From assembly GCA_031841125.1 (NCBI GenBank), contig CM063113.1, positions 61,435,211 through 61,499,210 on the forward strand: a DNA stretch of 64,000 bases, read 5' to 3'. Below, in pieces: positions 1,253 to 35,275 of the stretch; position 1 is the stretch's first letter, and each line of letters opens with the position of its first letter. Made by a program: the position numbers and the translations under genes. The notes beneath the pieces are model-generated. The model was given only the letters and a program-made list of their open reading frames with translations. It was not told the DNA's origin and searched no databases. The stretch comes from Acanthococcus lagerstroemiae (taxonomy: Eukaryota > Arthropoda > Insecta > Hemiptera > Eriococcidae).

Positions 1253-1652
1253 AGAGTTATTATTTTTCTTGCGAGAATCAACATTTTCTCCATTCTATCG
1301 TATTTCTCACAGTTCTCGAGAAAAACAAGCTCGTCTAGGTGAATTAACCGACGTGTACGTATGAAATAATCTGCTTTCGCCAGAATTTTAATCCTCCTTG
1401 CTCTAGCTGTCTCCAGTCCAAAGTTATTCGCGTTTTTACTCTTACAAAAATGAACAAGCAGCTAGCTGCTGGAAGAGGGTCGGCTCTCAACTGAAGAATT
1501 GGAGACTAGCCTATATCTCTTGCTGGCGCGGTTGCTGAAAAATATATCAGGAAAAAGACCTATTGGTAATTATGTTTAAGGTCTTTTGTTCCGGGATATA
1601 AGAGCTGATAGATGAAAGGTAACTGGGACGACACTACACACACACCAACAGC

Positions 1653-5566: not shown

Positions 5567-6689
5567 TCATATTTGGTTCTGCTAGTGATACCGATCAACG
5601 TAGCAGACGGTTCCTTGTATGCTAGTTGATTTGTAATTATCGATTATTTTGATTCATTCTATGAGGCATACCTACGTAAAATGTAGTACTTAGATTTTGG
5701 TAGTTAAACACAAGAGTTGAATGTTTGAGTGGACTAACATCTGAGCCAACCAGTTTCTTGGAAAATCCTTAATTTGGTTAAAATAAAAAGGTCCTTCTTG
5801 AATAAAAAAATCCCTCCCAGAAAATGTTTTAAGGAAGGACTCCGCCCTTCGCGCCTCATCTTAATCCCGCGGTCAGTTTTGGAGGAACAGTCTTTATTAT
5901 TATTTGATTCAGTGTCTGATTCTAATTATCTAATATAGTAATATTTCTAAAGGTTACACTTAGCTAAGTGTAAGAAGTGTTACTGAGATTATGAAAGTTG
6001 AACTTACCAGCTTAATGTTTCCTATGCGCAGGTCTATGAATTACTTGGTCACTAGAAAGGAATAATTTCAACCGAACCTCGAAGCTGAGAAATATTAACT
6101 AAGCTCTCAATAACGTCTATTTGATCATTATTCGTTTGCATTCTGTATAAAAATAGTGCTTCACGTTTTTTAATTTTTAGTACTTTCTGCAGTAGTTCCA
6201 GGAAAATGGTTTCCATATCTTTAGATACAATTCTTTTGATTTCATCGTCGTATTTCAACTATTCAGGACCTGTACTATTTTTATTAATTTGTAAATAAAT
6301 AGAATGCGATCGCATACTTGTGTTTTTTCGTAAATAATTACATCAAAACATAATGTACTAAATTTGACTTCAAAGACACCCATATATATTATTAAATTGT
6401 ACTCAAGCAACAATGATTCTCACTTTGGAGGCCTTTTCAAGCCGTCGTTTATGAGATATAGGGTATACGGCTAAAATCGTACCACTGTCCTCTCTATATT
6501 AGGAAATCTAACCTAATTAGCTTTTCCTGGTCGTAAAATTGAAAACTGTAGTTTGCCTGCAGTTTCCAGTTTTATCGATAGATAGCTATTAATATAACTG
6601 AATCAAAAAACTATTTAGCGTAATTTCGACGCAGGAAATTGGCTATTTTCGTCGATCGTAGTTTCAAAAAATTCCCGTAAATTTTTTGC
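5567..6689. other. 3' UTR of mRpS10 and intergenic sequence
   Basis: Contains AATAAA at 5782-5787, 216 bp past the mRpS10 stop. A 68-codon minus-strand open frame (6258-6052, lysine- and glutamate-rich, preceded by a stop and with no ATG at its head) resembles nothing I recognise; it may be part of an unknown minus-strand exon or chance. Nothing else is supported. Confidence 0.4.
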
Positions 6690-7600
6690 CTAGATGCAAA
6701 CCGCGCCCCTGTAGCTGTCTCGAGGGAAAAATTATTTGCGAATTGTCGGTTCACCCCAGAAAAATGGGAATTCCAAAAACGTAAGTTGGTGCACAATGTG
6801 TGGCATATTCAACGCGTCGAAGGCGACACCACTAATTTTCATTTTGACTACGTTTTTGAGTGTATCTCGGCAACGGAGGGTCAGCGTCAAATTTGGACAG
6901 CGAATTTGAACGCAGCAACAAATATTGAGTATAAATTAGTGGTTATCTCAATTTCTTTGATTTTTGAAAAATTTTGAAATTTCTCCATACTATACACCAT
7001 GTCTTTTATGGGGCTCAGCTGAAGTGACAGTCTTGTTCGAAATTTTCTCCTCTATCCAAAAATGTAAACCGCGCCCCTGTAGCTGTCTCGAGTACAAAAC
7101 TATTCGAAAATTATCGGTTCACCCCAGAGAAATGGAAATTTCGAAAACGTCAATTGGTGCACGATGTGTGGCATATTCAGCGCGTCGAAGGTGCAACCAC
7201 TAATTTTCACTTTGACCACGTTTTTGAGCGTATCCCGGCAACGGCGGGTCAGCGCCAAATTTGAAAAACAAATTTGAACTCGGCAAAAAAAACTGAGTAA
7301 GAATTGGTGATTATCTCAATTTTTTTGATTTTCGAAAATTTTTGAAATTTCTCCATACTACATCATGTCTTTTTTGGGGCGAATTTTTTTTTTTCAGCTG
7401 AAGAGACAGTCCTGTTCAAAATTTTCTCCTCTATCCAAAAATACAAACCGCATCCCATTAGCTGTCTCGAGTCCAAAACTATTCGCGATTTCGAAAACGT
7501 CCGCGAATATTCTGGCAATGCCTTCAGTCCGTCGAATATGCAACTCAACATGCACCAATTGACGTATTCGAAATGGCGAAAATCTCCAGACTGGGGATAG
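6690..7600. repeat. Left edge of the satellite: three diverged ~370-bp units
   Basis: A block ccgcgcccctgtagctgtct occurs at 6701 and 7069 and, more changed, at 7448, so the period is 368-379 bp. After it come ggttcaccccaga, the gaaaacgt...ttggtgcac block, the gtggcatattca...gcgtcgaagg block and a run like gatttttgaaaa. The same blocks in the same order form the left half of the main array units. These copies differ from one another far more than the core units do, the usual state of array edges. Confidence 0.75.
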
Positions 7601-10600
7601 CTAGAGGAAAACGGTTTGAAAATTTGAGGGCAAATTGATCTCCTCTTTTGAAAGTGTCAACCCGTTTCACTGAAGCTGCTTCCAATCCAAAGATTTTTGC
7701 ATTTTATTAGTTCGCCCCAAAGAAATTAGTGATTTTGAAAACGTCAGTTGGCGAATGACAAATAGCATATTCTACACGTCACTTTAGCGAATATTCTGGT
7801 AATGCCTTCATAACGTCGAATATGCAACTCAACATACACCAAACGACGTTTTCGAAATGTCGAATTTCTCTGGGGGGAACTAATAAAACGCGAAAATCTC
7901 CGGACTGGGGATAGCTAGAGGAAAACGGTTTGAAATTTTGAGAGCAAATTGATCCCCTCTTTCGAAAGTGTCAACCCATTTCGCTGTAGCTGCCTCCAAT
8001 CCAAAGATTTTTGCATTTTATTAGTTCGCCACAGAGAAATTAGCGATTTCGAAAACGTCAATTGACGTATGAGAAATAGCATATTCAATTCCTCGAAGGC
8101 GTCACAATTGTATTTCAAATTTTCCAATATTCTGGTAATGCCTTCAGCACGTCGAATATGCAACTCAACCTACACCAATTGTCGTTTTCGAAATCGCGAA
8201 TTTCTCTGGGGGGAACTAATAATACGCGAAAATCTCCAGACTGGGGATAGCTAGAGGAAAACGGTTTGAAATTTTGAGAGCAAATTGATCCCCTCTTTCG
8301 AAAGTGTCAACCCGTTTCGCTGTAGCTGCCTCCAATCCAAAGATTTTTGCATTTTATTAGTTCGCCCCAGAGAAATTAGCGATTTCGAAAACGTCAATTG
8401 ACGTATGAGAAATAGCATATTCAATTCTTCGAAGGCGTCACAATTGTATTTCAAATTTTCCAATATTCTGGTAATGCCTTCAGCACGTCGAATATGCAAC
8501 TCAACCTACACCAATTGTCGTTTTCGAAATCGCGAATTTCTCTGGGGGGAACTAATAATACGCGAAAATCTCCAGACTGGGGATAGCTAGAGGAAAACGG
8601 TTTGAAATTTTGAGAGCAAATTGATCCCCTCTTTCGAAAGTGTCAACCCGTTTCGCTGTAGCTGCCTCCAATCCAAAGATTTTTGCATTTTATTAGTTCG
8701 CCCCAGAGAAATTAGCGATTTCGAAAACGTCAATTGACGTATGAGAAATAGCATATTCAATTCCTCGAAGGCGTCACAATTGTATTTCAAATTTTCCAAT
8801 ATTCTGGTAATGCCTTCAGCACGTCGAATATGCAACTCAACCTACACCAATTGTCGTTTTCGAAATCGCGAATTTCTCTGGGGGGAACTAATAATACGCG
8901 AAAATCTCCGGACTGGGGTTAGCCAGAGGAAAACGGTTTGAAATTTGGAGAGCAAATTGATCCCCTCTTTCGAAAGTGTCAACCCGATTCGCAGTAGCTG
9001 CCTCCAATCCAAAGATTTTTGCATTTTATTAGTTCGCCCCAGTGAACTTAGCGATTTCGAAAACGGCGAGTATTCTGGTAATGCCTTCAGCACGTCGTAT
9101 ATACCACTCAACATACACCAATCGGATTTTCGCGTTCGCGAAAATCTCCGGACTGGGGATAGATAGAGGAAAACGGTTTGAAATTTTGAGAGCAAAATGA
9201 TCTCCTCTTCCGAAATTGTCAACCCGTTTCGCTGTAGCTGCCTCCAATCCAAAGATTTTTGCATTTTATTAGTTCGCCCCAGAGAAATTAGCGATTTCGA
9301 AAACGTCAATTGACGTATGAGAAATAGCATATTCAATTCCTCGAAGGCGTCACAATTGTATTTCAAATTTTCCAATATTCTGGTAATGCCTTCAGCACGT
9401 CGAATATGCAACTCAACCTACACCAATTGTCGTTTTCGAAATCGCGAATTTCTCTGGGGGGAACTAATAATACGCGAAAATCTCCGGACTGGGGATAGCC
9501 AGAGGAAAACGGTTTGAAATTTTGAGAGCAAATTGATCCCCTCTTTCGAAAGTGTCAACCCGTTTCACAGTAGCTGCCACCAATCCAAAGATTTTTGCAT
9601 TTTATTAGTTCGCCCCAGAAGAATTAGCAATTTCAAAAACGGCGAATATTCTGGTAATGCCTTCAGCACGTCGAATATGCAACTCAACCTACACCAATTG
9701 TCGTTTTCGAAATCGCGAATTTCTCTGGGGGGAACTAATAATACGCGAAAATCTCCGGACTGGGGATAGCTAGAGGAAACGGTTTGAAATTTTGAGAGCA
9801 AATTGATCCCCTCTTTCGAAAGTGTCAACCCGTTTCACAGTAGCTGCCACCAATCCAAAGATTTTTGCATTTTATTAGTTCGCCCCAGAAGAATTAGCAA
9901 TTTCAAAAACGGCGAATATTCTGGTAATGCCTTCAGCACGTCGAATATGCAACTCAACCTACACCAATTGTCGTTTTCGAAATCGCGAATTTCTCTGGGG
10001 GGAACTAATAATACGCGAAAATCTCCGGACTGGGGATAGCTAGAGGAAAACGGTTTGAAATTTTGAGAGCAAATTGATCCCCTCTTTCGAAAGTGTCAAC
10101 CCGTTTCGCAGTAGCTGCCACCAATCCAAAGATTTTTGCATTTCATTAGTTCGCCCCAGAAGAATTAGCAATTTCAAAAACGGCGAATATTCTGGTAATG
10201 CCTTCAGCACGTCGAATATGCAACTCAACCTACACCAATTGTCGTTTTCGAAATCGCGAATTTCTCTGGGGGGAACTAATAATACGCGAAAATCTCCGGA
10301 CTGGGGATAGCTAGAGGAAAACGGTTTGAAATTTTGAGAGCAAATTGATCCCCTCTTTCGAAAGTGTCAACGCGTTTCGCAGTAGCTGCCTCCAATCCAA
10401 AGATTTTTGCATTTTATTAGTTCGCCCCAGTGAACTTAGCGATTTCGAAAACGGCGAATATTCTGGTAACGCCTTCAGCACGTCGTATATGCCACTCAAC
10501 ATACACCAATTGGATTTTCGCGTTCGCGAAAATCTCCGGACTGGGGATAGATAGAGGAAAACGGTTTGAAATTTTGAGAGCAAAATGATCTCCTCTTCCG

Positions 10601-13600
10601 AAATTGTCAACCCGTTGCGCAGTAGCTGCCACCAATCCAAAGATTTTTGCATTTTATTAGTTCGCCCCAGAGAAATTAGCGATTTCGAAAACGTCAATTG
10701 ACGTATGAGAAATAGCATATTCAATTCTTCGAAGGCGTCACAATTGTATTTCAAATTCTCCAATATTCTGGTAATGCCTTCAGCACGTCGAATATGCAAC
10801 TCAACCTACACCAATTGTCGTTTTCGAAATCGCGAATTTCTCTGGGGGGAACTAATAATACGCGAAAATCTCCGGACTGGGGATAGCTAGAGGAAAACGG
10901 TTTGAAATTTTGAGAGCAAATTGATCCCCTCTTTCGAAAGTGTCAACCCGTTTCGCAGTAGCGGCCTCCAATCCAGAGATTTTTGCATTTTATTAGTTCG
11001 CCCCAGTGAACTTAGCGATTTCGAAAACGGCGAATATTCTGGTAATGCCTTCAGCACGTCGTATATGCCACTCAACATACACCAATTGGATTTTCGCGTT
11101 CGCGAAAATCTCCGGACTGGGGATAGATAGAGGAAAACGGTTTGAAATTTTGAGAGCTATATGATCTCCTCTTCCGAAATTGTCAACCCGTTGCGCAGTA
11201 GCTGCCACCAATCCAAAGATTTTTGCATTTCATTAGTTCGCCCCAGAAGAATTAGCAATTTCAAAAACGGCGAATATTCTGGTAATGCCTTCAGCACGTC
11301 GAATATGCAACTCAACCTACACCAATTGTCGTTTTCGAAATCGCGAATTTCTCTGGGGGGAACTAATAATACGCGAAAATCTCCGGACTGGGGATAGCTA
11401 GAGGAAAACGGTTTGAAATTTTGAGAGCAAATTGATCCCCTCTTTCGAAATTGTCAACCCGTTTCGCAGTAGCTGCCACCAATCCAAAGATTTTTGCATT
11501 TTATTAGTTCGCCCCAGAGAAATTAGCGATTTCGAAAACGTCAATTGACGTATGAGAAATAGCATATTCAATTCCTCGAAGGCGTCACAATTGTATTTCA
11601 AATTTTCCAATATTCTGGTAATGCCTTCAGCACGTCGAATATGCAACTCAACCTACACCAATTCACGTTTTCAAAATCGCGAATTTCTCTGGGGGGAACT
11701 AATAATACGCGAAAATCTCCGGACTGGGGATAGCTAGAGGAAAACGGTTTGAAATTTTGAGAGCAAATTGATCCCCTCTTTCGAAAGTGTCAACCCGTTT
11801 CGCAGTAGCTGCCACCAATCCAAAGATTTTTGCATTTCATTAGTTCGCCCCAGAAGAATTAGCAATTTCAAAAACGGCGAATATTCTGGTACTGCCTTCA
11901 GCACGTCGAATATGCCACTCAACCTACACCAATTGTCGTTTTCGAAATCGCGAATTTCTCTGGGGGGAACTAATAATACGCGAAAATCTCCGGACTGGGG
12001 ATAGCTAGAGGAAAACGGTTTGAAATTTTGAGAGCAAATTGATCCCCTCTTTCGAAAGTGTCAACGCGTTTCGCAGTAGCTGCCTCCAATCCAAAGATTT
12101 TTGCATTTTATTAGTTCGCCCCAGAGAAATTAGCGATTTCGAAAACGGCGAATATTCTGGTAATGCCCTCAGCACGTCGTATATGCCACTCAACCTACAC
12201 CAATTGTCGTTTTCGAAATCGCGAATTTCTCTGGGGGAACTAATAATACGCGAAAATCTCCGGACTGGGGATAGCTAGAGGAAAACGGTTTGACATTTTG
12301 AGAGCAAATTGATCCCCTCTTTCGAAAGTGTCAACGCGTTTCGCAGTAGCTGCCTCCAATCCAAAGATTTTTGCATTTTATTAGTTCGCCCCAGAGAAAT
12401 TAGCGATTTCGGAAACGTCAATTGACGTATGAGAAATAGCATATTCAATTCTTCGAAGGCGTCACAATTGTATTTCAAATTCTCCAATATTCTGGTAATG
12501 CCTTCAGCACGTCGAATATGCAACTCAACCTACACCAATTGTCGTTTTCGAAATCGCGAATTTCTCTGGGGGGAACTAATAATACGCGAAAATCTCCGGA
12601 CTGGGGATAGCTAGAGGAAAACGGTTTGAAATTTTGAGAGCAAATTGATCCCCTCTTTCGAAAGTGTCAACCCGTTTCGCAGTAGCGGCCTCCAATCCAG
12701 AGATTTTTGCATTTTATTAGTTCGCCCCAGTGAACTTAGCGATTTCGAAAACGGCGAATATTCTGGTAATGCCTTCAGCACGTCGTATATGCCACTCAAC
12801 ATACACCAATTGGATTTTCGCGTTCGCGAAAATCTCCGGACTGGGGATAGATAGAGGAAAACGGTTTGAAATTTTGAGAGCTATATGATCTCCTCTTCCG
12901 AAATTGTCAACCCGTTGCGCAGTAGCTGCCACCAATCCAAAGATTTTTGCATTTCATTAGTTCGCCCCAGAAGAATTAGCAATTTCAAAAACGGCGAATA
13001 TTCTGGTAATGCCTTCAGCACGTCGAATATGCAACTCAACCTACACCAATTGTCGTTTTCGAAATCGCGAATTTCTCTGGGGGGAACTAATAATACGCGA
13101 AAATCTCCGGACTGGGGATAGCTAGAGGAAAACGGTTTGAAATTTTGAGAGCAAATTGATCCCCTCTTTCGAAAGTGTCAACCCGTTTCGCAGTAGCTGC
13201 CTCCAATCCAGAGATTTTTGCATTTTATTAGTTCGCCCCAGTGAACTTAGCGATTTCGAAAACGGCGAATATTCTGGTAATGCCTTCAGCACGTCGTATA
13301 TGCCACTCAACATACACCAATTGGATTTTCGCGTTCGCGAAAATCTCCGGACTGGGGATAGATAGAGGAAAACGGTTTGAAATTTTGAGAGCAAAATGAT
13401 CTCCTCTTCCGAAATTGTCAACCCGTTGCGCAGTAGCTGCCACCAATCCAAAGATTTTTGCATTTTATTAGTTCGCCCCAGAGAAATTAGCGATTTCGAA
13501 AACGTCAATTGACGTATGAGAAATAGCATATTCAATTCCTCGAAGGCGTCACAATTGTATTTCAAATTTTCCAATATTCTGGTAATGCCTTCAGCACGTC

Positions 13601-16600
13601 GAATATGCAACTCAACCTACACCAATTCACGTTTTCAAAATCGCGAATTTCTCTGGGGGGAACTAATAATACGCGAAAATCTCCGGACTGGGGATAGCTA
13701 GAGGAAAACGGTTTGAAATTTTGAGAGCAAATTGATCCCCTCTTTCGAAAGTGTCAACCCGTTTCGCAGTAGCTGCCACCAATCCAAAGATTTTTGCATT
13801 TCATTAGTTCGCCCCAGAAGAATTAGCAATTTCAAAAACGGCGAATATTCTGGTAATGCCTTCAGCACGTCGAATATGCAACTCAACCTACACCAATTGT
13901 CGTTTTCGAAATCGCGAATTTCTCTGGGGGGAACTAATAATACGCGAAAATCTCCGGACTGGGGATAGCTAGAGGAAAACGGTTTGAAATTTTGAGAGCA
14001 AATTGATCCCCTCTTTCGAAAGTGTCAACCCGTTTCGCAGTAGCTGCCTCCAATCCAGAGATTTTTGCATTTTATTAGTTCGCCCCAGTGAACTTAGCGA
14101 TTTCGAAAACGGCGAATATTCTGGTAATGCCTTCAGCACGTCGTATATGCCACTCAACATACACCAATTGGATTTTCGCGTTCGCGAAAATCTCCGGACT
14201 GGGGATAGATAGAGGAAAACGGTTTGAAATTTTGAGAGCAAAATGATCTCCTCTTCCGAAATTGTCTACCCGTTGCGCAGTAGCTGCCACCAATCCAAAG
14301 ATTTTTGCATTTTATTAGTTCGCCCCAGAGAAATTAGCGATTTCGAAAACGTCAATTGACGTATGAGAAATAGCATATTCAATTCCTCGAAGGCGTCACA
14401 ATTGTATTTCAAATTTTCCAATATTCTGGTAATGCCTTCAGCACGTCGAATATGCAACTCAACCTACACCAATTCACGTTTTCAAAATCGCGAATTTCTC
14501 TGGGGGGAACTAATAATACGCGAAAATCTCCGGACTGGGGATAGCTAGAGGAAAACGGTTTGAAATTTTGAGAGCAAATTGATCCCCTCTTTCGAAAGTG
14601 TCAACGCGTTGCGCAGTAGCTGCCTCCAATCCAAAGATTTTTGCATTTTATTAGTTCGCCCCAGAGAAATTAGCGATTTCGGAAACGTCAATTGACGTAT
14701 GAGAAATAGCATATTCAATTCTTCGAAGGCGTCACAATTGTATTTCAAATTCTCCAATATTCTGGTAATGCCTTCAGCACGTCGAATATGCAACTCAACC
14801 TACACCAATTGTCGTTTTCGAAATCGCGAATTTCTCTGGGGGGAACTAATAATACGCGAAAATCTCCGGACTGGGGATAGCTAGAGGAAAACGGTTTGAA
14901 ATTTTGAGAGCAAATTGATCCCCTCTTTCGAAAGTGTCAACCCGTTTCGCAGTAGCGGCCTCCAATCCAGAGATTTTTGCATTTTATTAGTTCGCCCCAG
15001 TGAACTTAGCGATTTCGAAAACGGCGAATATTCTGGTAATGCCTTCAGCACGTCGTATATGCCACTCAACATACACCAATTGGATTTTCGCGTTCGCGAA
15101 AATCTCCGGACTGGGGATAGATAGAGGAAAACGGTTTGAAATTTTGAGAGCTATATGATCTCCTCTTCCGAAATTGTCAACCCGTTGCGCAGTAGCTGCC
15201 ACCAATCCAAAGATTTTTGCATTTCATTAGTTCGCCCCAGAAGAATTAGCAATTTCAAAAACGGCGAATATTCTGGTAATGCCTTCAGCACGTCGAATAT
15301 GCAACTCAACCTACACCAATTGTCGTTTTCGAAATCGCGAATTTCTCTGGGGGGAACTAATAATACGCGAAAATCTCCGGACTGGGGATAGCTAGAGGAA
15401 AACGGTTTGAAATTTTGAGAGCAAATTGATCCCCTCTTTCGAAATTGTCAACCCGTTTCGCAGTAGCTGCCACCAATCCAAAGATTTTTGCATTTTATTA
15501 GTTCGCCCCAGAGAAATTAGCGATTTCGAAAACGTCAATTGACGTATGAGAAATAGCATATTCAATTCCTCGAAGGCGTCACAATTGTATTTCAAATTTT
15601 CCAATATTCTGGTAATGCCTTCAGCACGTCGAATATGCAACTCAACCTACACCAATTCACGTTTTCAAAATCGCGAATTTCTCTGGGGGGAACTAATAAT
15701 ACGCGAAAATCTCCGGACTGGGGATAGCTAGAGGAAAACGGTTTGAAATTTTGAGAGCAAATTGATCCCCTCTTTCGAAAGTGTCAACCCGGTTCGCAGT
15801 AGCTGCCACCAATCCAAAGATTTTTGCATTTCATTAGTTCGCCCCAGAAGAATTAGCAATTTCAAAAACGGCGAATATTCTGGTACTGCCTTCAGCACGT
15901 CGAATATGCCACTCAACCTACACCAATTGTCGTTTTCGAAATCGCGAATTTCTCTGGGGGGAACTAATAATACGCGAAAATCTCCGGACTGGGGATAGCT
16001 AGAGGAAAACGGTTTGAAATTTTGAGAGCAAATTGATCCCCTCTTTCGAAAGTGTCAACGCGTTTCGCAGTAGCTGCCTCCAATCCAAAGATTTTTGCAT
16101 TTTATTAGTTCGCCCCAGAGAAATTAGCGATTTCGAAAACGGCGAATATTCTGGTAATGCCCTCAGCACGTCGTATATGCCACTCAACCTACACCAATTG
16201 TCGTTTTCGAAATCGCGAATTTCTCTGGGGGAACTAATAATACGCGAAAATCTCCGGACTGGGGATAGCTAGAGGAAAACGGTTTGACATTTTGAGAGCA
16301 AATTGATCCCCTCTTTCGAAAGTGTCAACGCGTTTCGCAGTAGCTGCCTCCAATCCAAAGATTTTTGCATTTTATTAGTTCGCCCCAGAGAAATTAGCGA
16401 TTTCGGAAACGTCAATTGACGTATGAGAAATAGCATATTCAATTCTTCGAAGGCGTCACAATTGTATTTCAAATTCTCCAATATTCTGGTAATGCCTTCA
16501 GCACGTCGAATATGCAACTCAACCTACACCAATTGTCGTTTTCGAAATCGCGAATTTCTCTGGGGGGAACTAATAATACGCGAAAATCTCCGGACTGGGG

Positions 16601-19600
16601 ATAGCTAGAGGAAAACGGTTTGAAATTTTGAGAGCAAATTGATCCCCTCTTTCGAAAGTGTCAACCCGTTTCGCAGTAGCGGCCTCCAATCCAGAGATTT
16701 TTGCATTTTATTAGTTCGCCCCAGTGAACTTAGCGATTTCGAAAACGGCGAATATTCTGGTAATGCCTTCAGCACGTCGTATATGCCACTCAACATACAC
16801 CAATTGGATTTTCGCGTTCGCGAAAATCTCCGGACTGGGGATAGATAGAGGAAAACGGTTTGAAATTTTGAGAGCTATATGATCTCCTCTTCCGAAATTG
16901 TCAACCCGTTGCGCAGTAGCTGCCACCAATCCAAAGATTTTTGCATTTCATTAGTTCGCCCCAGAAGAATTAGCAATTTCAAAAACGGCGAATATTCTGG
17001 TAATGCCTTCAGCACGTCGAATATGCAACTCAACCTACACCAATTGTCGTTTTCGAAATCGCGAATTTCTCTGGGGGGAACTAATAATACGCGAAAATCT
17101 CCGGACTGGGGATAGCTAGAGGAAAACGGTTTGAAATTTTGAGAGCAAATTGATCCCCTCTTTCGAAAGTGTCAACCCGTTTCGCAGTAGCTGCCTCCAA
17201 TCCAGAGATTTTTGCATTTTATTAGTTCGCCCCAGTGAACTTAGCGATTTCGAAAACGGCGAATATTCTGGTAATGCCTTCAGCACGTCGTATATGCCAC
17301 TCAACATACACCAATTGGATTTTCGCGTTCGCGAAAATCTCCGGACTGGGGATAGATAGAGGAAAACGGTTTGAAATTTTGAGAGCAAAATGATCTCCTC
17401 TTCCGAAATTGTCAACCCGTTGCGCAGTAGCTGCCACCAATCCAAAGATTTTTGCATTTTATTAGTTCGCCCCAGAGAAATTAGCGATTTCGAAAACGTC
17501 AATTGACGTATGAGAAATAGCATATTCAATTCCTCGAAGGCGTCACAATTGTATTTCAAATTTTCCAATATTCTGGTAATGCCTTCAGCACGTCGAATAT
17601 GCAACTCAACCTACACCAATTCACGTTTTCAAAATCGCGAATTTCTCTGGGGGGAACTAATAATACGCGAAAATCTCCGGACTGGGGATAGCTAGAGGAA
17701 AACGGTTTGAAATTTTGAGAGCAAATTGATCCCCTCTTTCGAAAGTGTCAACCCGTTTCGCAGTAGCTGCCACCAATCCAAAGATTTTTGCATTTCATTA
17801 GTTCGCCCCAGAAGAATTAGCAATTTCAAAAACGGCGAATATTCTGGTAATGCCTTCAGCACGTCGAATATGCAACTCAACCTACACCAATTGTCGTTTT
17901 CGAAATCGCGAATTTCTCTGGGGGGAACTAATAATACGCGAAAATCTCCGGACTGGGGATAGCTAGAGGAAAACGGTTTGAAATTTTGAGAGCAAATTGA
18001 TCCCCTCTTTCGAAAGTGTCAACCCGTTTCGCAGTAGCTGCCTCCAATCCAGAGATTTTTGCATTTTATTAGTTCGCCCCAGTGAACTTAGCGATTTCGA
18101 AAACGGCGAATATTCTGGTAATGCCTTCAGCACGTCGTATATGCCACTCAACATACACCAATTGGATTTTCGCGTTCGCGAAAATCTCCGGACTGGGGAT
18201 AGATAGAGGAAAACGGTTTGAAATTTTGAGAGCAAAATGATCTCCTCTTCCGAAATTGTCTACCCGTTGCGCAGTAGCTGCCACCAATCCAAAGATTTTT
18301 GCATTTTATTAGTTCGCCCCAGAGAAATTAGCGATTTCGAAAACGTCAATTGACGTATGAGAAATAGCATATTCAATTCCTCGAAGGCGTCACAATTGTA
18401 TTTCAAATTTTCCAATATTCTGGTAATGCCTTCAGCACGTCGAATATGCAACTCAACCTACACCAATTCACGTTTTCAAAATCGCGAATTTCTCTGGGGG
18501 GAACTAATAATACGCGAAAATCTCCGGACTGGGGATAGCTAGAGGAAAACGGTTTGAAATTTTGAGAGCAAATTGATCCCCTCTTTCGAAAGTGTCAACC
18601 CGTTTCGCAGTAGCTGCCACCAATCCAAAGATTTTTGCATTTCATTAGTTCGCCCAGAAGAATTAGCAATTTCAAAAACGGCGAATATTCTGGTAATGCC
18701 TTCAGCACGTCGAATATGCAACTCAACCTACACCAATTGTCGTTTTCGAAATCGCGAATTTCTCTGGGGGGAACTAATAATACGCGAAAATCTCCGGACT
18801 GGGGATAGCTAGAGGAAAACGGTTTGAAATTTTGAGAGCAAATTGATCCCCTCTTTCGAAAGTGTCAACGCGTTTCGCAGTAGCTGCCTCCAATCCAAAG
18901 ATTTTTGCATTTTATTAGTTCGCCCCAGTGAACTTAGCGATTTCGAAAACGGCGAATATTCTGGTAACGCCTTCAGCACGTCGTATATGCCACTCAACAT
19001 ACACCAATTGGATTTTCGCGTTCGCGAAAATCTCCGGACTGGGGATAGATAGAGGAAAACGGTTTGAAATTTTGAGAGCAAAATGATCTCCTCTTCCGAA
19101 ATTGTCAACCCGTTGCGCAGTAGCTGCCACCAATCCAAAGATTTTTGCATTTTATTAGTTCGCCCCAGAGAAATTAGCGATTTCGAAAACGTCAATTGAC
19201 GTATGAGAAATAGCATATTCAATTCTTCGAAGGCGTCACAATTGTATTTCATATTTTCCAATATTCTGGTAATGCCTTCAGCATGTCGAATATGCCACTC
19301 AACCTACACCAATTGTCGTTTTCGAAATCGCGAATTTCTCTGGGGGAACTAATAATACGCGAAAATCTCCGGACTGGGGATAGCTAGAGGAAAACGGTTT
19401 GAAATTTTGAGAGCAAATTGATCCCCTCTTTCGAAAGTGTTAACCCGTTTCGCTGTAGCTGTCTCCAATCCAATGATCTTTGCATTTTATTAGTTCGCCC
19501 CAGAGAAATTAGCGAATCCAAAAACGTGAATTGGCGTATGAGAAATAGCATATTTAATACGTCGAAGGCGTCGCAGATTTATTTCAAGTTTTCTAATATT

Positions 19601-19856
19601 CCGGTAATGCCTTCAGCACGTCAAATATGCAACTCTACATACACCAATTGACGTTTTCAAAATGCCGAATTTCTCTGGGGGGAACTAATAATACGCGAAA
19701 ATCTCCGGAGTGGGGATAGCTAGAGGAAAACGGTTTGAAATTTTGAGGGTAAATTGATCTCCTCTTTCGAAAGTGTCAACCCGATTTACTGCAGCTGCCT
19801 CCAATCCAAAGATTTTTGCATTTTATTAGTTCGCCCCATAGAAATTAGTGATTTTT
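7601..19856. repeat. Satellite array: 42 units of three length classes plus a partial unit
   Basis: Using ctagaggaaaacgg (or atagaggaaaacgg) as unit start, the starts are 7601, 7915, 8251, 8587, 8923, 9163, 9499, 9770, 10040, 10311, 10551, 10887 and so on to 19384, with a partial unit from 19720. Classes: A 335-336 bp (16 units, plus one of 314 bp), B 270-271 bp (14), C 240 bp (11). B lacks about 65 bp found in A (the block starting tcaattgacgtatgag). C lacks that block plus the gaatttctctgggggg block, and ends in the direct join ttttcgcgttcgcg. In A, the segment from ccaatccaaag to gtcaattg (~68 bp) is repeated in reverse complement from caattgtcg to ctccggactgg at about 85% identity, so each A unit can fold into a long hairpin. 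Both strands carry recurrent open frames, which follow from the repeat and are not genes. Confidence 0.95.
10688..18538. repeat. Large tandem duplication inside the satellite, shift 3,994 bp
   Basis: The unit order C B A B B' A C B C A B C A starting at 10887 recurs at 14881, every boundary shifted by exactly 3,994 bp (11398/15392, 12275/16269, 14209/18203, 14545/18539). B' is the 270-bp variant with one G fewer, and it recurs at the same place. Private variants, such as the gacattttgagag start of the unit at 12275/16269, are shared. I noticed one substitution, t11798 versus g15792. The similarity begins inside the unit before 10887, near 10688. Confidence 0.9.
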
Positions 19857-20708
19857 AATTAAATTTTCACCATTCTGCTTCATCTGGTGAATTCGAATTC
19901 GTTATTTAAATTGGGTGGCAACGCTTCGTTCCGCAAATAAACGCCAATGACGTAGCTCAATTTCGACGCTGAATTCCCTTCAGTACTCCAGCTTCACTCG
20001 TTCAAAATACAAACAAACGTGTAACGATTTTATATTTTGCAAGCCGCAAGGTAAAACAGAGAGTATTACAACACGCTGACCGTATCAAGTACTTTCATAT
20101 TTTTACAATTATGCGAGAAAAACAAATAATATTAACAACACAACATGCAACTAAACACTACAGACGTAGGTACGTATAAAAATATACATTTTGTCCTTAA
20201 CTTTTAACTCGAAATTAGAGTTACATTTTGACGATTCTTAACGCTAATTTGTACTGTCGATTAACGTAAGTACATGGTACACACTAGGAGTTTTACCTTA
20301 TCCCTATTAAGTATATAAATTTAAAATACGAAGTAAAATGCGCGACTTGAAGACGAAAGCTGATCGCGAAGCTTTTCGATCAACGTCAACGCGACGCGAA
20401 TCTACCGCCTTTACACAACACGTATAATGACAAATTAATAAAACGTACGAGACGAGGACACACCCCGATGATTTAATTTACAACTGGTAAATACGTCTAT
20501 TTCCTCGTTTCATTTTATTTTTTCAATCAGTATGGATTCTATTTCATCACATGAATCGCTTTTTCGTTTGCACTAATGCTTTGAACGTTCTAATTACATG
20601 AACTTCCATTCTCTTCGCATCGTATGATAATCATTGTAAAATTATGGCTGGTTACGCGTAAATATTTGTGATTCGAAGTAGTACTCAGAGTTTACATATT
20701 CAGCAATA
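19857..20708. other. Intergenic sequence between satellite and AAA-ATPase-like gene
   Basis: The satellite breaks off at about 19856 into unrelated AT-rich sequence. I see no open frame of note and no clear promoter before the ATG at 20709. Confidence 0.4.
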
Positions 20709-21887
20709 ATGGCAGAGGAGTACCAAGAACAAGAAACTTGGCCAAACATTCTTGAAGCCGCTGGAATCGATGAAACGGATAGAATTCGTTATGCCCATGA
20801 ATTGACGACTCGAAAAATGAAAGCAGACGTCTTGTTCGAATTGGACCCTAGCATCATCATACGAATGTTTCTACAAGATTATATCACAGATGGTGATATT
20901 TTGAAGTTGCTGTTATACAGACAAAGAACTAAAGCGCCCGGAGAAGCACTGCAAGACGTTGGCTCACCTCCAGCTACCATCAAAAAACCAAGATTGACTG
21001 GGCCAGCAACGAGAATTAAAACTTCCTTTGAAAATGTAATTGGAAAGCCTTATTTTGTCGACAAGACGCTCATGATTCGAAGAATAATCGATTTACTGAT
21101 TGGTTCTGAGGAAAACGTCGACCCTGGTTGTCAGATGGCACGAGATCCTCTATTACTAACAGCACCACGACGCTTTGGGAAAATAACGAACCTGGAGATG
21201 TTGGAATGCTTTTTTGGAGGTCTGATAACCAAAGAATCATTTTCTCACACGAAAATTGGAAAAGACACCGCAGCCTTTGATTGGTATGGTAAATTTACAG
21301 TAATTAGCATTACGTGTATCGATCATGTTGACACTCGTGACAAATGCATTGAAGCTTGCCGTTTAATCTTGCATCAAGCCTTTGAAAAGTATCAGCACAT
21401 GGTAGATTACCTTCCAGAAGCACATATTGAAGCATTTAAGAAATGGATTGACTCAGAAAAATATCGCGATAAAAGTGAGGCGGAAATTCTCGAAGGTCTT
21501 CGATTATTACTGCAGTGTGCACGTTGCTATGAAACAAAGCCTGTTTTTCTATTCATAGATGAATTCGATAAAATTTGTTGCGAGGCTATTTTTGTAGCAG
21601 GTCGGCATTTAACTAGTATTATAAGTTTTTACTGTAATATGGTTGCCCAAGCAGTAAAACACCACCCTGTATGCTCGGCGGCAGTATTCACAGGCGTCAC
21701 TGCTATCACATGTCGAGGTCTGTCGTCATTGAACAATCTTCAATGGTACAAGTTCCTTGATAATGAAAAATTCTATGAATTTTATGGTGTAACAGATGAA
21801 GAATTTGAGGAGTTAATGAAACGAGAGCTGATTCCCGAAAAAGTGCGCGAACAAAAAGAATTGGCTCAAAATTGGTACAATGGTTAA
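20709..21887 (+). CDS. AAA-ATPase-like protein (PF09820 type), C-terminally truncated
   Basis: Intronless frame of 392 residues. Residues ~10-72 look like a SAM-type helical domain (AGIDETD...L...ITDGDILKLLL). From ~105 it follows the AAA-ATPase-like family: FENVIGKPYFVDKTLMI (107-123), a P-loop PRRFGKIT (153-160), Walker B VFLFIDEFD (279-287), AVFTGV (325-330) and SSLNN (339-343). In related proteins the P-loop reads PRRFGK(S/T); here the Mg-coordinating residue is Ile159, which predicts weak or no ATP hydrolysis. The frame stops at WYNG, where relatives continue with Y.FG and then a C-terminal PD-(D/E)XK-like domain (DUF1703), so the nuclease half is missing. The family is common in bacteria and appears patchily in insects; horizontal origin is an inference. 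It could be a recently broken copy. Confidence 0.72.
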   Translation: MAEEYQEQETWPNILEAAGIDETDRIRYAHELTTRKMKADVLFELDPSIIIRMFLQDYITDGDILKLLLYRQRTKAPGEALQDVGSPPATIKKPRLTGPATRIKTSFENVIGKPYFVDKTLMIRRIIDLLIGSEENVDPGCQMARDPLLLTAPRRFGKITNLEMLECFFGGLITKESFSHTKIGKDTAAFDWYGKFTVISITCIDHVDTRDKCIEACRLILHQAFEKYQHMVDYLPEAHIEAFKKWIDSEKYRDKSEAEILEGLRLLLQCARCYETKPVFLFIDEFDKICCEAIFVAGRHLTSIISFYCNMVAQAVKHHPVCSAAVFTGVTAITCRGLSSLNNLQWYKFLDNEKFYEFYGVTDEEFEELMKRELIPEKVREQKELAQNWYNG

Positions 21888-22800
21888 TTGTATCAAGATA
21901 TCAAAATTTTCAATACTTACTCGGTGGTTAACTTTATAATATATCAAGCCGTTGAATAAAAAATAAAAAATACCCACACCAGCTGCAGAAGTTTGGAATA
22001 TACAAGAGAGGAAGCGACGTACGCAGCCCAGCCGAAGAAAACAAAGCAAAAACAGCAGCCACAGACCGCCGTAACCCGACCTCAGGACCGAAACCTCCAC
22101 TCCTGGCAAATGGCAAACTAAACATCGAGACACTTAGAAGCAGGGCGAGCTCAACATCCGTATCGAAATAACATGTAAAGGTGAGTCACCGCCGGGGATC
22201 TCAAACTCCGCTAAAGTAAAGGCTAAGTCGACCCCAAGTCGGTTAGTGGGTACCGGGGGGTTAGTAACCCACAATATCCGTTGTCTCTCAACTCAGGAAA
22301 GAAAATGGGGGGGGGGGGGTAAACAAAATTCTAAAAAACATCGCGGGTTAAAAATTATACATTATAATTGTCGCGGTCTCGCTAATGAGGAAAGACTAAC
22401 AGAATTCGAGCTTGCATTCAATAACATAAAATTTGATGTCATCGGCTTATCAGAGATAAGGCGGAAAGGCGAGAAAATTATCAAACGTAGCAATGGAAAC
22501 ATTTTATTCTATTATGGTAACACGATAGGGTATCGCGGAGTGGGTTTTTATATTAGCAAAAACGTAGTAAATAGTATCACCGAAATGAAAGGGATAACTG
22601 AACGTATAGCTCTGCTTAAGATGAAAGTAAACGAAACAATTGAGGGGTTGGTTTTGAAAACAGCCTTAGTCAATTTTTTTCAAAAATGAGATTATTATGT
22701 TATTTTATAGCATTTTTCGCGCCGAATACGGTGATAACACTGATTTTTCATGAAAACGGGCCCTAATACCTTATAATTTCAGCTGAAAAACAAAAACTTC

Positions 22801-22841
22801 GGTGAAAACGACCATAGTCACTGACTATGGTCGTTTTCACC
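22801..22841. repeat. Perfect 20-bp palindrome with 1-nt centre inside the transposon
   Basis: GGTGAAAACGACCATAGTCA (22801-22820), a single c, then the exact reverse complement (22822-22841). It contains the terminal repeat core in both orientations and lies about 160 bp from the left end. The same motif stands alone at 25253-25272, about 190 bp from the right end. A subterminal transposase-binding site is the likely role. Confidence 0.85.
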
Positions 22842-22944
22842 AGCCGTTTCATTATAGTGTTGACATTCTGTTATCAGTGCATAAATTTACGTTTACGATT
22901 TTATTCTGTTTCATTCCTAATTACATCATTTAATTTCGTTCAAA

Positions 22945-25026
22945 ATGGCCGATGACCAGCTTCCTTTAAAAAAAATGAAACAAAATCATCCATATATAGC
23001 CATAAGAGATAAAAAGGTTCGTGGTGAACCCCATCTACAACACCGTACGAATGTAATAGTACCAGCGAAAGAATTAGGCCCTGATTGCCAGTAAGTTGAT
23101 GCATAATATTCTGTAAAACGACTACTTACAGCACAATGTAGGCATATACAAGTTACAATGCTTCTCATTTTTATTCAGATGTACAAGATTGAAGTGTTTC
23201 GAAGCTGTTCCTGCAGAAACGAGACAACAACTTTTTGACCACTTTTACTCAACTTTTCCAACGAAAAATGACCAGGATTCCCATCTTGCTGGCTTGATTA
23301 CAATGCGACCGGTAGTACAAAGAAGGCCGCGGACAGTTCTCGTTACAGTGCCCGTACTTGATGATGAGAATGGTGTAATCGATGATGATTTTGACAACGA
23401 CTTAGTAGAGGGAAAACATCCTAATACTGCCGCGTTTTTTAAAATAAAATCCGGTGGAAAGATGACGAGATTCCTGTGAGTATTATCGTTTATTTCAAAA
23501 TTTCTTATGTTCTTATCATCTACAGTCATACTGTTATTGTGTAGGTTTGCTTGAAAGCTTTTATGTCTATCTTTGCTGTAACACGTGCACGTATACGCCG
23601 AATTCAAATGAACTTGGTTGAACAAGGATGTTCCCCTCGTGACAAACGCGGACTACATGACAACCATTATAAATCAACACCGGATCCAGTTATGTACCTC
23701 ATCCACCACCACATTAAGTCATTACGACGCCATCAATCCCACTACAGCATTAGAGACAATCCAACACGGTATTACCTACCTGAAGATTTCAAAAGCGTAG
23801 CTGATGTTCATAGAGAGTTTCTCAATGTATACCGTATCAACGTTTCACAACGACTATACAGATCAGTGTTCGACACCTACAACCTCGGCTTCTCCATGCC
23901 TAAAAGTGATACATGTAGTACATGTGATGAGTTCAGGCACAAAATTCAATTAGCTGTGACAAACGAAGAGAAAAATTCATTGGAGGTTGCTCGTCTGGCC
24001 CATTTAAAATTGGCAGGAAAATTCAGAGAGCTGAAACAACGTTATACTGCACAGGCCAAAAGAAAGAAAGTCACAGTACTATCATTTGACTTTATGCAAA
24101 ATCTCCCAGTTCCGAATCTGAACACAAATGACGTATACTATGCTACACAACTTTGGGTGTACATCTTTGGAATTCATAACCTAGGTACGAAGCAAGCTAC
24201 TATGTACATTTACGATGAGGTCAATGGAAAGAAGGGTGCAAACAATGTGTGCTCATTATTATTCAAATATTTAAGCAGGCTGCCCAAACGCCCGTTAGTG
24301 CTACTGTGCGACAATTGTCCGGGCCAGAATAAAAACAAGATCTTGGTCAGATTCCTTTACGCAGTTGTACACATATTTAAAATTGTTCCTAAGGTGACAG
24401 TGATCTTTCCAGTGAGAGGGCATACTTATTTACCTAACGATCAAGACTTCTCGGTAGTATCGAAGAAAAAAAAGTTCATACCGGCGGAGACTCCTTCTGA
24501 ATGGATTGAAGCTTTCAAAATGGCTCGAATAACAAAACCGACATTCGAAGTAGTGCCTGTTTATTACGAATCGTTTCTTAATATGTCCGACAGTTTAGCA
24601 CCATATTTTTTACCGACACCACGCCCCCCAATGAACTTAAAATCTGGAAGAATGATTGAGATTTCAGGTTTTTCACCAGACGTGCGTATTCGACAGTCGT
24701 ACACTGGAAGGTGGTATCATATCGCTGTAAAGAAGACGTCTGTAATGCCATCTCAAGTTAATCTTCAGCCGCTGTATGCAAAACAACTCGAAGTTCTGCC
24801 ACGGAAGTTGAAAGATATGAAGAAGCTGTTCCCATTTACGAAGAATCCTTCTAGTAGAGAATATTATTCTCAGTTTTGGAATCTGGATAATGTTGATAAC
24901 CCTTCAACTTCTGCCCCAGCTATCAGCAGTTCTGTTCGTGCTAATGATGATGAGTATAGCATCGATTCTATTGAATGCATCGAATTTATCGACAGCGATG
25001 AAAACAGCAGTGGCGAAGATGAATAA
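22945..25026 (+). CDS. Transposase of the 2.8-kb DNA transposon, three exons
   Basis: Exons 22945-23090, 23179-23475 and 23545-25026 (stop TAA). The first join (donor gtaagt, acceptor ttcag) gives GPDCQCTRLKCF, a cysteine-rich N-terminal module. Exon 3 encodes about 490 residues: a CSTC pair (120s), SFDFMQNLPVP (D180 of the exon-3 frame), LLCDNCPGQNKN (D254) and RGHTYLPNDQDF (H291, D297/D299). These acidic residues are candidates for an RNase H-fold DD(E/D) core. The layout resembles insect DUF7869-type transposase-like proteins. At the second intron (gtgagt...gtag) the frame is off by one base, since CT + GTT TGC leads to an early TGA, so this copy is either broken there or spliced non-canonically. 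AATAAA at 25128-25133 may end the transcript. Confidence 0.78.
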
Positions 25027-34174: not shown

Positions 34175-35275
34175 TTACACGATCAATCGCTCACCTGCCA
34201 AATCCGAAGACATGTGCCCTTGCAGCAGTACAAATGCCGTCGCTTCCAAAATGTTCGGCGAACTCTTGCTCGGCGACGACAGGAAAGTAGGAGATAGTTT
34301 CTGCGGCCACGTCGCTGGCGACGATTTCGACTCCGTCGGTTCGTATTTATCGGTCGCGTCGTACTCTCTAGCGGACAGCGCAGAAACAGAGTCTTCGTCC
34401 GCTTTGCCGCAGCATTTTGCTTCTCGATGGTAGCCGGTTTCTTGCTCTATTGTGGTCACGCAATCCGGCAGCTGAGCTTCACTATTCGTTTTCGCAGCTT
34501 CCTCCGACTTCGGCTGACGCACAAACGGATTCTGAAACAAACCGATCAGTTTTTCCAAATTCGCTGGAATCTTGGCCGACTCCATGGCAACAGCCGGCGC
34601 CTGCAGTATTGGCGACACCCACGATAATTTGCGAATTTTCTGCGTTATATTCGACCCGTCTTTATGGTCCGACTTTTCGTCCTTCTTCGACCTGGTAACC
34701 TCATCTTTTTTACTTAACTCGTCGTTCTTATTTTCCTTACCCGCGTGATCTTTTTCTTCTTTCTCTTCTTTATTTTCGGTGCTCGGATTACATTCGGTCA
34801 GCGGCTTTGTCTCCGGTTCGACGACGGTCACCTTGAACCGAGACGACGTCTTGCCCAGCGTTGGCACGTAGAACGGCGGCGACGTATTCGGGCTTTCAGT
34901 CACCTTCGAAACTTGAAACCGATTTCGTACCGGCGACGGACTCGACACGGGACTAGGAATAGGACTGGGGGCCGGACTACGCAGCCGACCATTCTTCTTT
35001 GGCTCGCCCAAGAAGTTATTCGACGGGCACGAGGGTGCGCTGGTGATGTCCTGCGGTCGAAACTGCAGCGATTCGCAAGTCAGCGAGATTTTACGCGAGT
35101 CGACAATCGACAGCTTCAGATTGCGATTACGAGCACTGAGTTCGCGAACCGCGTCTTCCTCCTCGTTGCTATCGCTGTCCATTTCGCCTTTGTGTTCCAT
35201 GATTTTATTCTCGTTTTCGGCACAGCGGTCGCGTATCTTCTCGACCAACGACTTATATTTAACGGCGGTGTTTTC
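34175..35275 (-). CDS. PPP1R37: PPP1R37 terminal exon, disordered C-terminal region
   Basis: 366 residues after the acceptor ttatag. It begins ENTAVKYKSLVEKIRDRC, the helix that follows the last LRR in this family. It then becomes low-complexity: an acidic stretch (DSDSNEEED), a run rich in Ser-Pro (SPAPSPIPSPVSSPSPV), two similar blocks RFQVSKVTESP and RFKVTVVEPE, and a Lys/Glu-rich segment. RKLSW at about residues 215-219 of the exon fits the loose PP1-docking pattern (K/R-x-V/I/L-x-F/W), an inference. A good donor (G|gtgagc, last exon base 34195) lies in frame 18 bases before the stop codon, so a longer isoform with an exon further downstream is possible. Confidence 0.85.
   Translation of the reverse strand, partial: ENTAVKYKSLVEKIRDRCAENENKIMEHKGEMDSDSNEEEDAVRELSARNRNLKLSIVDSRKISLTCESLQFRPQDITSAPSCPSNNFLGEPKKNGRLRSPAPSPIPSPVSSPSPVRNRFQVSKVTESPNTSPPFYVPTLGKTSSRFKVTVVEPETKPLTECNPSTENKEEKEEKDHAGKENKNDELSKKDEVTRSKKDEKSDHKDGSNITQKIRKLSWVSPILQAPAVAMESAKIPANLEKLIGLFQNPFVRQPKSEEAAKTNSEAQLPDCVTTIEQETGYHREAKCCGKADEDSVSALSAREYDATDKYEPTESKSSPATWPQKLSPTFLSSPSKSSPNILEATAFVLLQGHMSSDLAGERLIV

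What the first reader, a model, noticed from the sequence alone, without database searches (positions are those of the whole stretch)
7601..19856. Satellite whose unit is a long hairpin
In the 336-bp units, about 68 bp on the left arm (from ccaatccaaag to gtcaattg) recurs in reverse complement on the right arm at roughly 85% identity; weaker pairing continues inward around gcatattc/gaatatgc. The array is therefore a head-to-head arrangement repeated 16 times in full form and 25 times in shortened forms. Any read-through RNA from either strand would fold into many stems. Such an array could feed small-RNA production (hairpin siRNA or piRNA) or affect chromatin; that role is inference. The 12-bp palindrome CGTCAATTGACG marks the inner arm of each A unit.
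Basis: partly seen in the sequence, partly recalled or inferred. Interest (0 to 1): 0.85.

Follow-up and report, generated by a model that had tools for sequence, protein, structure and literature searches.

The report
Tandem satellite with hairpin-shaped repeat unit
A 12-kilobase stretch of animal, probably insect, DNA repeats a unit made of two mirror-image halves; it is one of many such arrays in this genome and a known kind of satellite DNA, and nothing yet shows that the hairpin itself does a job.

Summary
Window 7682-19800 holds 42 head-to-tail units: 16 A (335-336 bp), one of 314 bp, 14 B (270-271 bp), 11 C (240 bp). A is an imperfect 249-bp palindrome, far beyond shuffles; B keeps a reduced stem; C has lost the long hairpin.

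Two direct ~370-bp repeats beside the array (6660-7440) are not hairpins, yet their first ~180 bp match A in both orientations: A is best read as an inverted duplication of an older direct monomer, then amplified. A locus on another contig again shows direct monomers around inverted ones.

The host genome answered late: related repeats lie at 18 or more further places on six contigs, with shortened units too. A perfected small palindrome in C was found only here among the eight loci read for it.

Selection on pairing is unproven. One-sided, pair-breaking changes far outnumber compensated ones, but compensated ones exceed one relatedness-keeping control. Fold-back template switching could explain both. 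Small-RNA or chromatin roles are untested.

This is a new member of a known kind: satellites with inversely oriented subunits, as in Tribolium and parasitoid wasps.

The parts
1363..1436 (+). solo, diverged fragment of the half-unit, about 5 kb left of the direct repeats
   Evidence: nhmmer with half-unit profile, E 1.2e-10; sequence read
6660..7440 (+). two direct ~370-bp older monomers (D1, D2), not hairpins
   Evidence: 84% identity between 6694-7106 and 7062-7485; self-inverted scores 28 and 26, reached by 94 and 209 of 500 shuffles; D2 against A 147 (+) and 128 (-), shuffle maximum 81 of 300; D1 113 and 109, shuffle maximum 77 of 300
7441..7681 (+). transitional, degenerate unit: D-like left half, A-like inverted right half, both short-form deletions
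   Evidence: nhmmer hits 7416-7491 (+) and 7643-7504 (-); self-inverted score 36, reached by 4 of 500 shuffles; junctions
7682..19800 (+). tandem array of 42 complete units in the order aAAACABBBCACBABBACBCABCAACBABBACBCABCABCAA
   Evidence: blastn of one unit against the window
7682..7995 (+). 314-bp left-edge variant of the A unit
8332..8667 (+). a typical A unit: imperfect palindrome made of two inverted ~168-bp halves
9004..9243 (+). first C unit (240 bp): long hairpin lost, 22-bp fold-back palindrome present
9580..9849 (+). first B unit (270 bp): inner left arm deleted
10531..14655 (+). copy 1 of a higher-order repeat (14 units, ACBABBACBCABCA, period 3,994 bp)
   Evidence: 13 mismatches in 4,125 bp against 14525-18649; 1 mismatch in 10689-14605
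14525..18649 (+). copy 2 of the higher-order repeat
19801..19854 (+). truncated last unit; array ends abruptly

Best explanation
This is one array of a dispersed satellite family. Its monomer arose by inverted (head-to-head) duplication of about 170 bp of an older, directly repeated ~370-bp monomer still present at the array's left edge. The 336-bp composite was amplified head to tail and kept uniform by unequal exchange or a like process. Two internal deletions gave the B-like and C-like short forms, which are shared with arrays on other contigs and so are older than this array or recurrent. In this array's C lineage a small imperfect palindrome was then made perfect, the mark of fold-back template switching. 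A recent duplication of a 14-unit block added about a third of the present length. The hairpin is most likely an inherited by-product of that origin, perhaps touched up by template switching, rather than a structure kept for a function. If the array is transcribed its RNA would be double-stranded enough to enter a Dicer pathway; that step is pure inference. Shown: anatomy, homology of halves and D monomers, shared junctions, block duplication, other loci. Inferred: order of events, exchange mechanism, absence of function.
For: D2 against A: 147 (+) and 128 (-), maximum of 300 shuffles 81; D1 113 and 109, maximum 77. The two halves of A are 68% alike, A halves against D1 and D2 60-66%, D1 against D2 81%. 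Units within a class differ by 1.3-2.4% (A without its right-edge unit 1.6%) while outer arms differ by about 18%. Second locus: L007 has half-units in the order +++++-+-+-+++, with direct repeats of 70-80% identity around inverted ones. Short forms elsewhere: B-like and C-like junctions in L010, L017, L018 and L020, B-like in L021. Perfected C palindrome 11 of 11 C units here and 0 in the seven other loci scanned. Block duplication: 1 mismatch in 3,917 bp. Within this array pairing is not kept: of A-paired columns that changed in the edge units, 0 of 16 (left) and 2 of 14 (right) were compensated; covariation score 0.014 equals its shuffled mean. Across 45 distinct A-like rows from seven loci, one-sided pair-breaking cells are 405, compensated cells 36.
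Against: Across loci the compensated changes exceed chance in some controls: 36 cells against a shuffled mean of 19.4 (0 of 500 shuffles reach it; relatedness not kept); with partners re-matched among pairs of the same type, which keeps relatedness, 32 cells against a mean of 12.9 (2 of 2000) and 15 pairs against 8.6 (22 of 2000). Sliding the partners gave 17-24 pairs and 21-31 cells, not clearly less than the observed 16 and 36. With the 35 rows at least 85% like the reference: 16 cells against 4.5 (21 of 2000) but only 4 pairs against 2.1 (269 of 2000); for two of the pairs inspected the compensated form is confined to one locus. Partner columns may share mutation rates, so this is a hint, not proof, of constraint or of arm-to-arm copying. 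In the edge units paired columns changed about half as often as unpaired ones (15% against 33%, 12% against 26%). Columns 101-125 of the half-unit alignment are well conserved between the A halves and with D2 (24/25, 21/24, 21/24), less so with D1 (18/24 and 18/24). A genome search with D2 did not complete, so the age and spread of D were not measured.
Confidence: 0.66

Rival explanations
1. Self-correcting hairpin: replication or repair switches templates between the two arms, copying changes from one arm to the other, so that the palindrome is partly maintained by its own mechanics without any function for the organism.
For: C units of this array carry a perfect GATTTTCGCG/CGCGAAAATC palindrome where the C-like units of other loci have an imperfect one. 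Excess of compensated double changes across loci.
Against: Arms remain about 18% different in the outer stem; pair-breaking one-sided cells outnumber compensated ones 405 to 36; no such signal inside this array.
Confidence: 0.2
2. Hairpin-RNA locus: the array is transcribed as a long RNA that folds into many stems, is cut by Dicer-2 into siRNAs, and silences a gene or the relatives of the repeat, as described for tandem hpRNA loci in Drosophila.
For: Strong RNA folds on both strands; tandem hpRNA loci with 9-20 copies (hp-CG4068) and 13 copies (hp-tHMG cluster) are described (PMC10317233, passages seen); satellite siRNAs and piRNAs are described in Tribolium castaneum (PMC7796160, passages seen). 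Other arrays would be natural targets.
Against: No RNA data. 25 of 42 units have a reduced or lost stem. No 16-mer of A elsewhere in the window. A 191-codon frame of the array has no relative at E 1 among 48 candidates.
Confidence: 0.1
3. Transposon origin: the hairpin unit is a fold-back or MITE-type element that inserted and was then multiplied in tandem.
For: Unit is two inverted repeats round a loop. Short copies occur: 1363-1436 and L025 with one full unit and part of another. In T. castaneum, TCAST satellite segments form terminal inverted repeats of transposon-like elements near genes (PMC3411249, passages seen).
Against: Direct D monomers already explain the halves. Of three places with a single listed A match that were fetched, two are ends of mixed A/B/C arrays and the third (L025) begins inside a unit. 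Comparison of 5801-6700 with 19841-20700 gave only short matches, the best a 14-nt AT-rich inverted one (E 0.008) away from the array edges.
Confidence: 0.1
4. Chromatin or centromere role: the dyads or the ~168-bp half-unit position nucleosomes or attract centromere proteins.
For: Dyad-rich satellites are linked with (peri)centromeric regions in Tribolium by their authors, without experimental proof (PMC13081366, passages). Half-unit length is close to a nucleosome repeat (inference). Many listed matches lie on contig C9 between 34.7 and 58.4 Mb (list cut short).
Against: Arrays are short and scattered over six contigs; this one is followed by open reading frames from 20.7 kb on. Best CENP-B-box-like match in A is 12 of 15 positions, 6 of them wild.
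Confidence: 0.06
5. Assembly artefact: the near-perfect 3,994-bp block duplication, or the array length, is a mis-assembly.
For: Only 1 mismatch in 3,917 bp between the copies.
Against: Mismatches gather at both ends of the matching stretch (13 in 4,125 bp), and the hairpin unit does not depend on the duplication.
Confidence: 0.1

Closest known systems
TmSat2, minor satellite of Tribolium madens (PMC13081366; abstract and passages seen)
   Same: Monomer of related subunits in opposite orientation that form a long imperfect palindrome; subunits derive from one short progenitor.
   Different: 704-bp monomer with ~300-bp inverted arms, thousands of arrays, inversions at array level. Here 336 bp and one orientation within this array; no sequence comparison was made.
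Tribolium brevicornis 1,061-bp satellite with ~470-bp inverted segments (as described in PMC13081366; original not seen)
   Same: Long inversely oriented subunits make up the monomer.
   Different: Longer arms, major satellite of its genome; no sequence comparison was made.
Trichogramma brassicae 385-bp satellite with 80-bp inverted repeats (as described in PMC13081366; original not seen)
   Same: Monomer and arm length close to those here.
   Different: Its sequence was not at hand, so homology was not tested.
[quoted passage not shown]
   Same: Insect satellites with predicted dyad or cruciform structures.
   Different: Details and sequences not seen.
TCAST transposon-like elements of Tribolium castaneum (PMC3411249, passages seen)
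   Same: Satellite segments in inverted orientation near genes, likely to form hairpins.
   Different: Dispersed elements with ~269-bp terminal inverted repeats and target-site duplications, not tandem arrays.
Tandem hairpin-RNA loci hp-CG4068 and hp-tHMG cluster of Drosophila (PMC10317233, passages seen)
   Same: Tandem hairpins with copy-number turnover.
   Different: Those are transcribed and Dicer-2-dependent and have target genes; here transcription, small RNAs and a target are unknown.

Membership tests
Satellite DNA with inversely oriented subunits in the monomer | Head-to-tail tandem repetition of a long monomer | tested here: met
   42 units in one orientation
Satellite DNA with inversely oriented subunits in the monomer | Monomer made of two related subunits in opposite orientation | tested here: met
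   Self-inverted score 191, shuffle maximum 44; halves 68% alike; holds for A, reduced in B, lost in C
Satellite DNA with inversely oriented subunits in the monomer | Units homogenised, with degenerate edges | tested here: met
   Within-class difference 1.3-2.4%; edge units 8.6% and 11.4% from the others
Satellite DNA with inversely oriented subunits in the monomer | Several arrays in the genome | tested here: met
   369 matches of one A unit at E 0.001 or better, 38 of 1107 candidates scored, list cut short; half-units in 7 of 18 fetched palindrome places, the other 11 without
Hairpin-RNA (hpRNA) locus | Long inverted repeat able to form an extended RNA duplex | tested here: met
   A units; B reduced, C not
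Hairpin-RNA (hpRNA) locus | Arms homologous to a target gene | tested here: inconclusive
   No 16-mer elsewhere in the window; genome matches to A seen are of the same family in the loci read; no gene search of the genome was made
Hairpin-RNA (hpRNA) locus | Transcript and Dicer-2-dependent 21-22-nt RNAs | not testable with these tools
   No RNA data held
MITE / fold-back transposon | Dispersed single copies with terminal inverted repeats and target-site duplications | tested here: inconclusive
   Three places with one listed A match were read: two array ends, one copy of a unit and a part without an obvious element end; no terminal repeats at this array's edges

The most novel reading that the evidence does not exclude
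The arrays double as tandem hairpin-RNA loci: A units yield siRNAs that act on the family's own D-type and array relatives, so that an inverted duplication turned a passive repeat into the source of its own silencing, with the stem kept in repair by fold-back template switching and with B and C as decay or escape forms.
Probability: 0.07. Interest if true: 0.7.

Novelty: new member of a known kind. Interest (0 to 1): 0.35.

Why it matters
Long dyads inside a satellite monomer are described as not so common (PMC13081366, passage), and how they start is rarely visible. Here the presumed direct-repeat precursor, a transitional unit, the composite hairpin unit and its shortened forms lie side by side in about 13 kb, and a second locus repeats the scene. 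The order of events, and whether arms copy each other by template switching, can be tested with the arrays of this one genome and a sister species. If small RNAs were found, one could ask whether an inverted duplication alone starts silencing of a repeat family.

Tried and rejected
Known structured RNA: no Rfam family in the window at gathering scores. Protein-coding relic: a 191-codon minus-strand frame found no relative at E up to 1; a doubled A unit carries stops in all six frames. Relatives in public DNA: two exact 20-mers and one 22-letter pattern gave 0 stretches in viral contigs; the one 20-mer hit in genome contigs (a Planctomycetia contig) extends to 21 matching bases and is about what I expect by chance in 257 billion bases (my estimate, no call); rejected. 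No match of 6660-8667 in the phage collection. Literature: five sequence words are in 0 papers of the held library; topic searches are. CENP-B-box-like motif: best 12 of 15 positions (6 wild) in A and 13 of 15 on the D minus strand; judged too loose, no shuffle run. Larger inserted element: no terminal repeats joining the flanks. My own earlier reading that C arose in one step by a fold-back insertion was dropped: other loci show the right-arm deletion without the perfect palindrome. My earlier claim that the stem shows no covariation holds only inside this array, not across loci; the odds of the best explanation were lowered from 0.72 to 0.66 and those of a transposon origin from 0.15 to 0.10 for that and. 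Ten of 45 rows below 85% identity, some perhaps aligned in the wrong orientation, were dropped only in the third test. Host identity: animal, probably insect, from a reverse-transcriptase LINE (the label RTE-like is recalled) and relatives of one ORF, the sole named one from the mayfly Ephemera danica at E 2.7e-5; order not settled.
Full report
What is there. Window 7682-19800 is a head-to-tail array of 42 complete units, followed by a truncated unit to 19854. In order they read aAAACABBBCACBABBACBCABCAACBABBACBCABCABCAA, where A is 335-336 bp (16 units), a is 314 bp (1), B is 270-271 bp (14) and C is 240 bp (11). All units have one orientation.

The hairpin. The A consensus aligns to its own reverse complement over 249 bp, score 191; 500 shuffles reached at most 44. 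One by one, 15 of 16 A units score 172-191 and the last 117; the 314-bp unit 142; B units 64-125; C units 34 each, the last within the shuffles of the C consensus (maximum 42). Outer arms match at 59-61 of 73 columns in 15 of 16 A units, 53 of 73 in the last. One A unit folds at -136.2 (+ RNA), -146.5 (- RNA) and -71.8 kcal/mol (DNA), 0 of 100 shuffles as stable each time. In RNA folds of three and four units many pairs join different units.

Where the hairpin came from. Left of the array, 6660-7440, lie two direct repeats of about 370 bp (84% over 6694-7106 and 7062-7485). They are not hairpins: their self-inverted scores are reached by 94 (D1) and 209 (D2) of 500 shuffles. Yet their first ~180 bp match A in both orientations: D2 147 and 128, maximum of 300 shuffles 81; D1 113 and 109, maximum 77. 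The halves of A are 68% alike, A halves against D 60-66%, D1 against D2 81%. The unit between D and the array (7441-7681) has a D-like left half and an inverted right half; its self-inverted score 36 is reached by 4 of 500 shuffles. The simplest reading is an inverted duplication of part of a D monomer, then tandem amplification.

The rest of the genome. The genome search failed nine times before it answered. The assembly has 658 Mb in 438 contigs. CGTCAATTGACG occurs at 35 places, 15 of them in this array; the reversed control pattern at 23. Of the 20 places elsewhere I read 18 with about 5 kb on each side: 7 hold half-units, 11 none; the other two, read with 3,012 bases each, have no match to A, D1 or D2. 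A search with one A unit gave 369 matches (38 of 1107 candidates scored; counts are lower bounds and the list was cut), at 11 further places on C6, C8 and C9 in the part shown, among them an array at C9:58.40-58.43 Mb. Together that is 18 places outside the window on C1, C2, C6, C7, C8 and C9. In six of the seven loci half-units mostly alternate in orientation. The seventh, L007, reads +++++-+-+-+++: direct monomers, then inverted composites, then direct ones, the same scene as here on another contig. The search with D2 did not complete, so the spread of D itself is unknown.

How the units changed. Units of one class differ by 1.3-2.4% on 238 shared columns, A-B 4.5%, A-C 10.9%, B-C 11.0%; the edge units are 8.6% and 11.4% from the rest. 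24 of the 25 short units share one exact left-arm junction; the 25th has one base changed. Closely similar junctions, not identical ones, occur in L010, L017, L018, L020 and L021, so this deletion is older than the array or recurrent. C-like right-arm deletions without the perfect palindrome occur in L010, L017, L018, L020 and in the window's own transitional unit; the deleted stretch is bounded by CGCGAA repeats (read by eye). In this array's C units, 11 of 11, the place holds GATTTTCGCG facing its inverted copy CGCGAAAATC, 10 identical in the stretch compared and the first with one base changed beside it; the pattern is absent from the seven other loci scanned. Turning an imperfect palindrome into a perfect one is a known mark of template switching (recalled, not tested). 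A 14-unit block is repeated at an offset of 3,994 bp, 13 mismatches in 4,125 bp and 1 in the inner 3,917 bp: a recent duplication or, less likely, an assembly error.

Is the stem under selection? The answer is mixed. Inside the array, no: at the left edge unit 16 of 106 A-paired columns changed and 0 were compensated; at the right edge unit 14 of 115 changed and 2 were compensated. On 17 A-type units (12 distinct rows, 121 pairs) one pair changed on both sides (44 of 500 shuffles reach that) and the covariation score equals the shuffled mean. Across loci I took 51 full-length A-like units, 45 distinct rows from this array and six other loci. Pair-breaking one-sided cells number 405, compensated cells 36, double changes that do not pair 19. 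Shuffles give 19.4 compensated cells on average and none of 500 reaches 36; slid partners give 21-31 cells and 17-24 pairs against 36 and 16 observed. Re-matching partners within pair types, which keeps relatedness, gives 32 compensated cells against 12.9 (2 of 2000) and 15 pairs against 8.6 (22 of 2000); with the 35 closest rows 16 against 4.5 (21 of 2000) but 4 pairs against 2.1 (269 of 2000). At the seven pairs inspected the compensated forms are largely fixed per locus, so the number of events is small. Shared mutation rates of partner columns, arm-to-arm copying and selection could each cause this; I cannot part them.

Context. The window is animal DNA, probably insect: an AAA-ATPase-like ORF (20709-21884, PF09820), a LINE in pieces and an ORF at 34178-35275 (-) with 43 relatives in the protein collection. 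The array sits beside open reading frames at least on its right.

Comparison with what is known. Satellites with long inverted subunits are on record: T. madens TmSat2, T. brevicornis, and Trichogramma brassicae with 80-bp arms in 385 bp (PMC13081366, passages); Diadromus and Eupelmus (PMC8122249, passages). The first paper calls longer dyads within satellite repeats not so common and says that formation in vivo is unverified. Tandem hairpins that make siRNAs exist in Drosophila (PMC10317233, passages). Satellite siRNAs and piRNAs exist in Tribolium although TCAST1 RNA is said to lack significantly stable structure (PMC7796160, passages). So small RNAs would not need the hairpin, and the hairpin does not prove small RNAs.

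Verdict. The proposed role is untested. This is a new member of a known kind with an unusually readable origin; the coevolution of its arms is an open, testable question.

Noticed in passing
window 22638-25467: An ORF with a DUF7869 domain (23545-25023) lies between inverted arms of 35 nt (94% complementary) and interrupts a LINE whose pieces continue at 25420. Similar ~20-nt motifs recur inside each end (22801-22841, two perfect 20-nt arms 1 nt apart, and 25248-25273). It looks like a nested DNA transposon of a little-described kind; part of the arms may be LINE target sequence.
   Followed up: partly
window 7416-7491 and 1363-1436; L025 1126-1200 and 1255-1327; L018 1975-2044: Fragments of the half-unit end at nearly the same place (profile position 77-79), and several others in L021, L024 and L026 begin at 68-73. 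The half-unit may consist of two modules with a natural boundary there.
   Followed up: no
window 20709-21884: AAA-ATPase-like ORF (PF09820) about 0.9 kb right of the array; its two relatives found are 592 and 599 aa, so this 392-aa frame is short.
   Followed up: partly
window 34178-35275 (-): 366-aa frame with 43 relatives (best 71% identity over 98% of the query) and no Pfam family; likely part of a conserved insect gene.
   Followed up: partly
window 8842-9417 and four similar stretches (-): Open frames of 164-191 codons run across array units on the minus strand; the one searched has no relatives, so most likely a by-product of unit length and composition.
   Followed up: partly
L010, L020, L021 (array ends): At the ends of these arrays one or two units match A on the opposite strand at low identity; either true inversions or the unit's own reverse self-match.
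   Followed up: no
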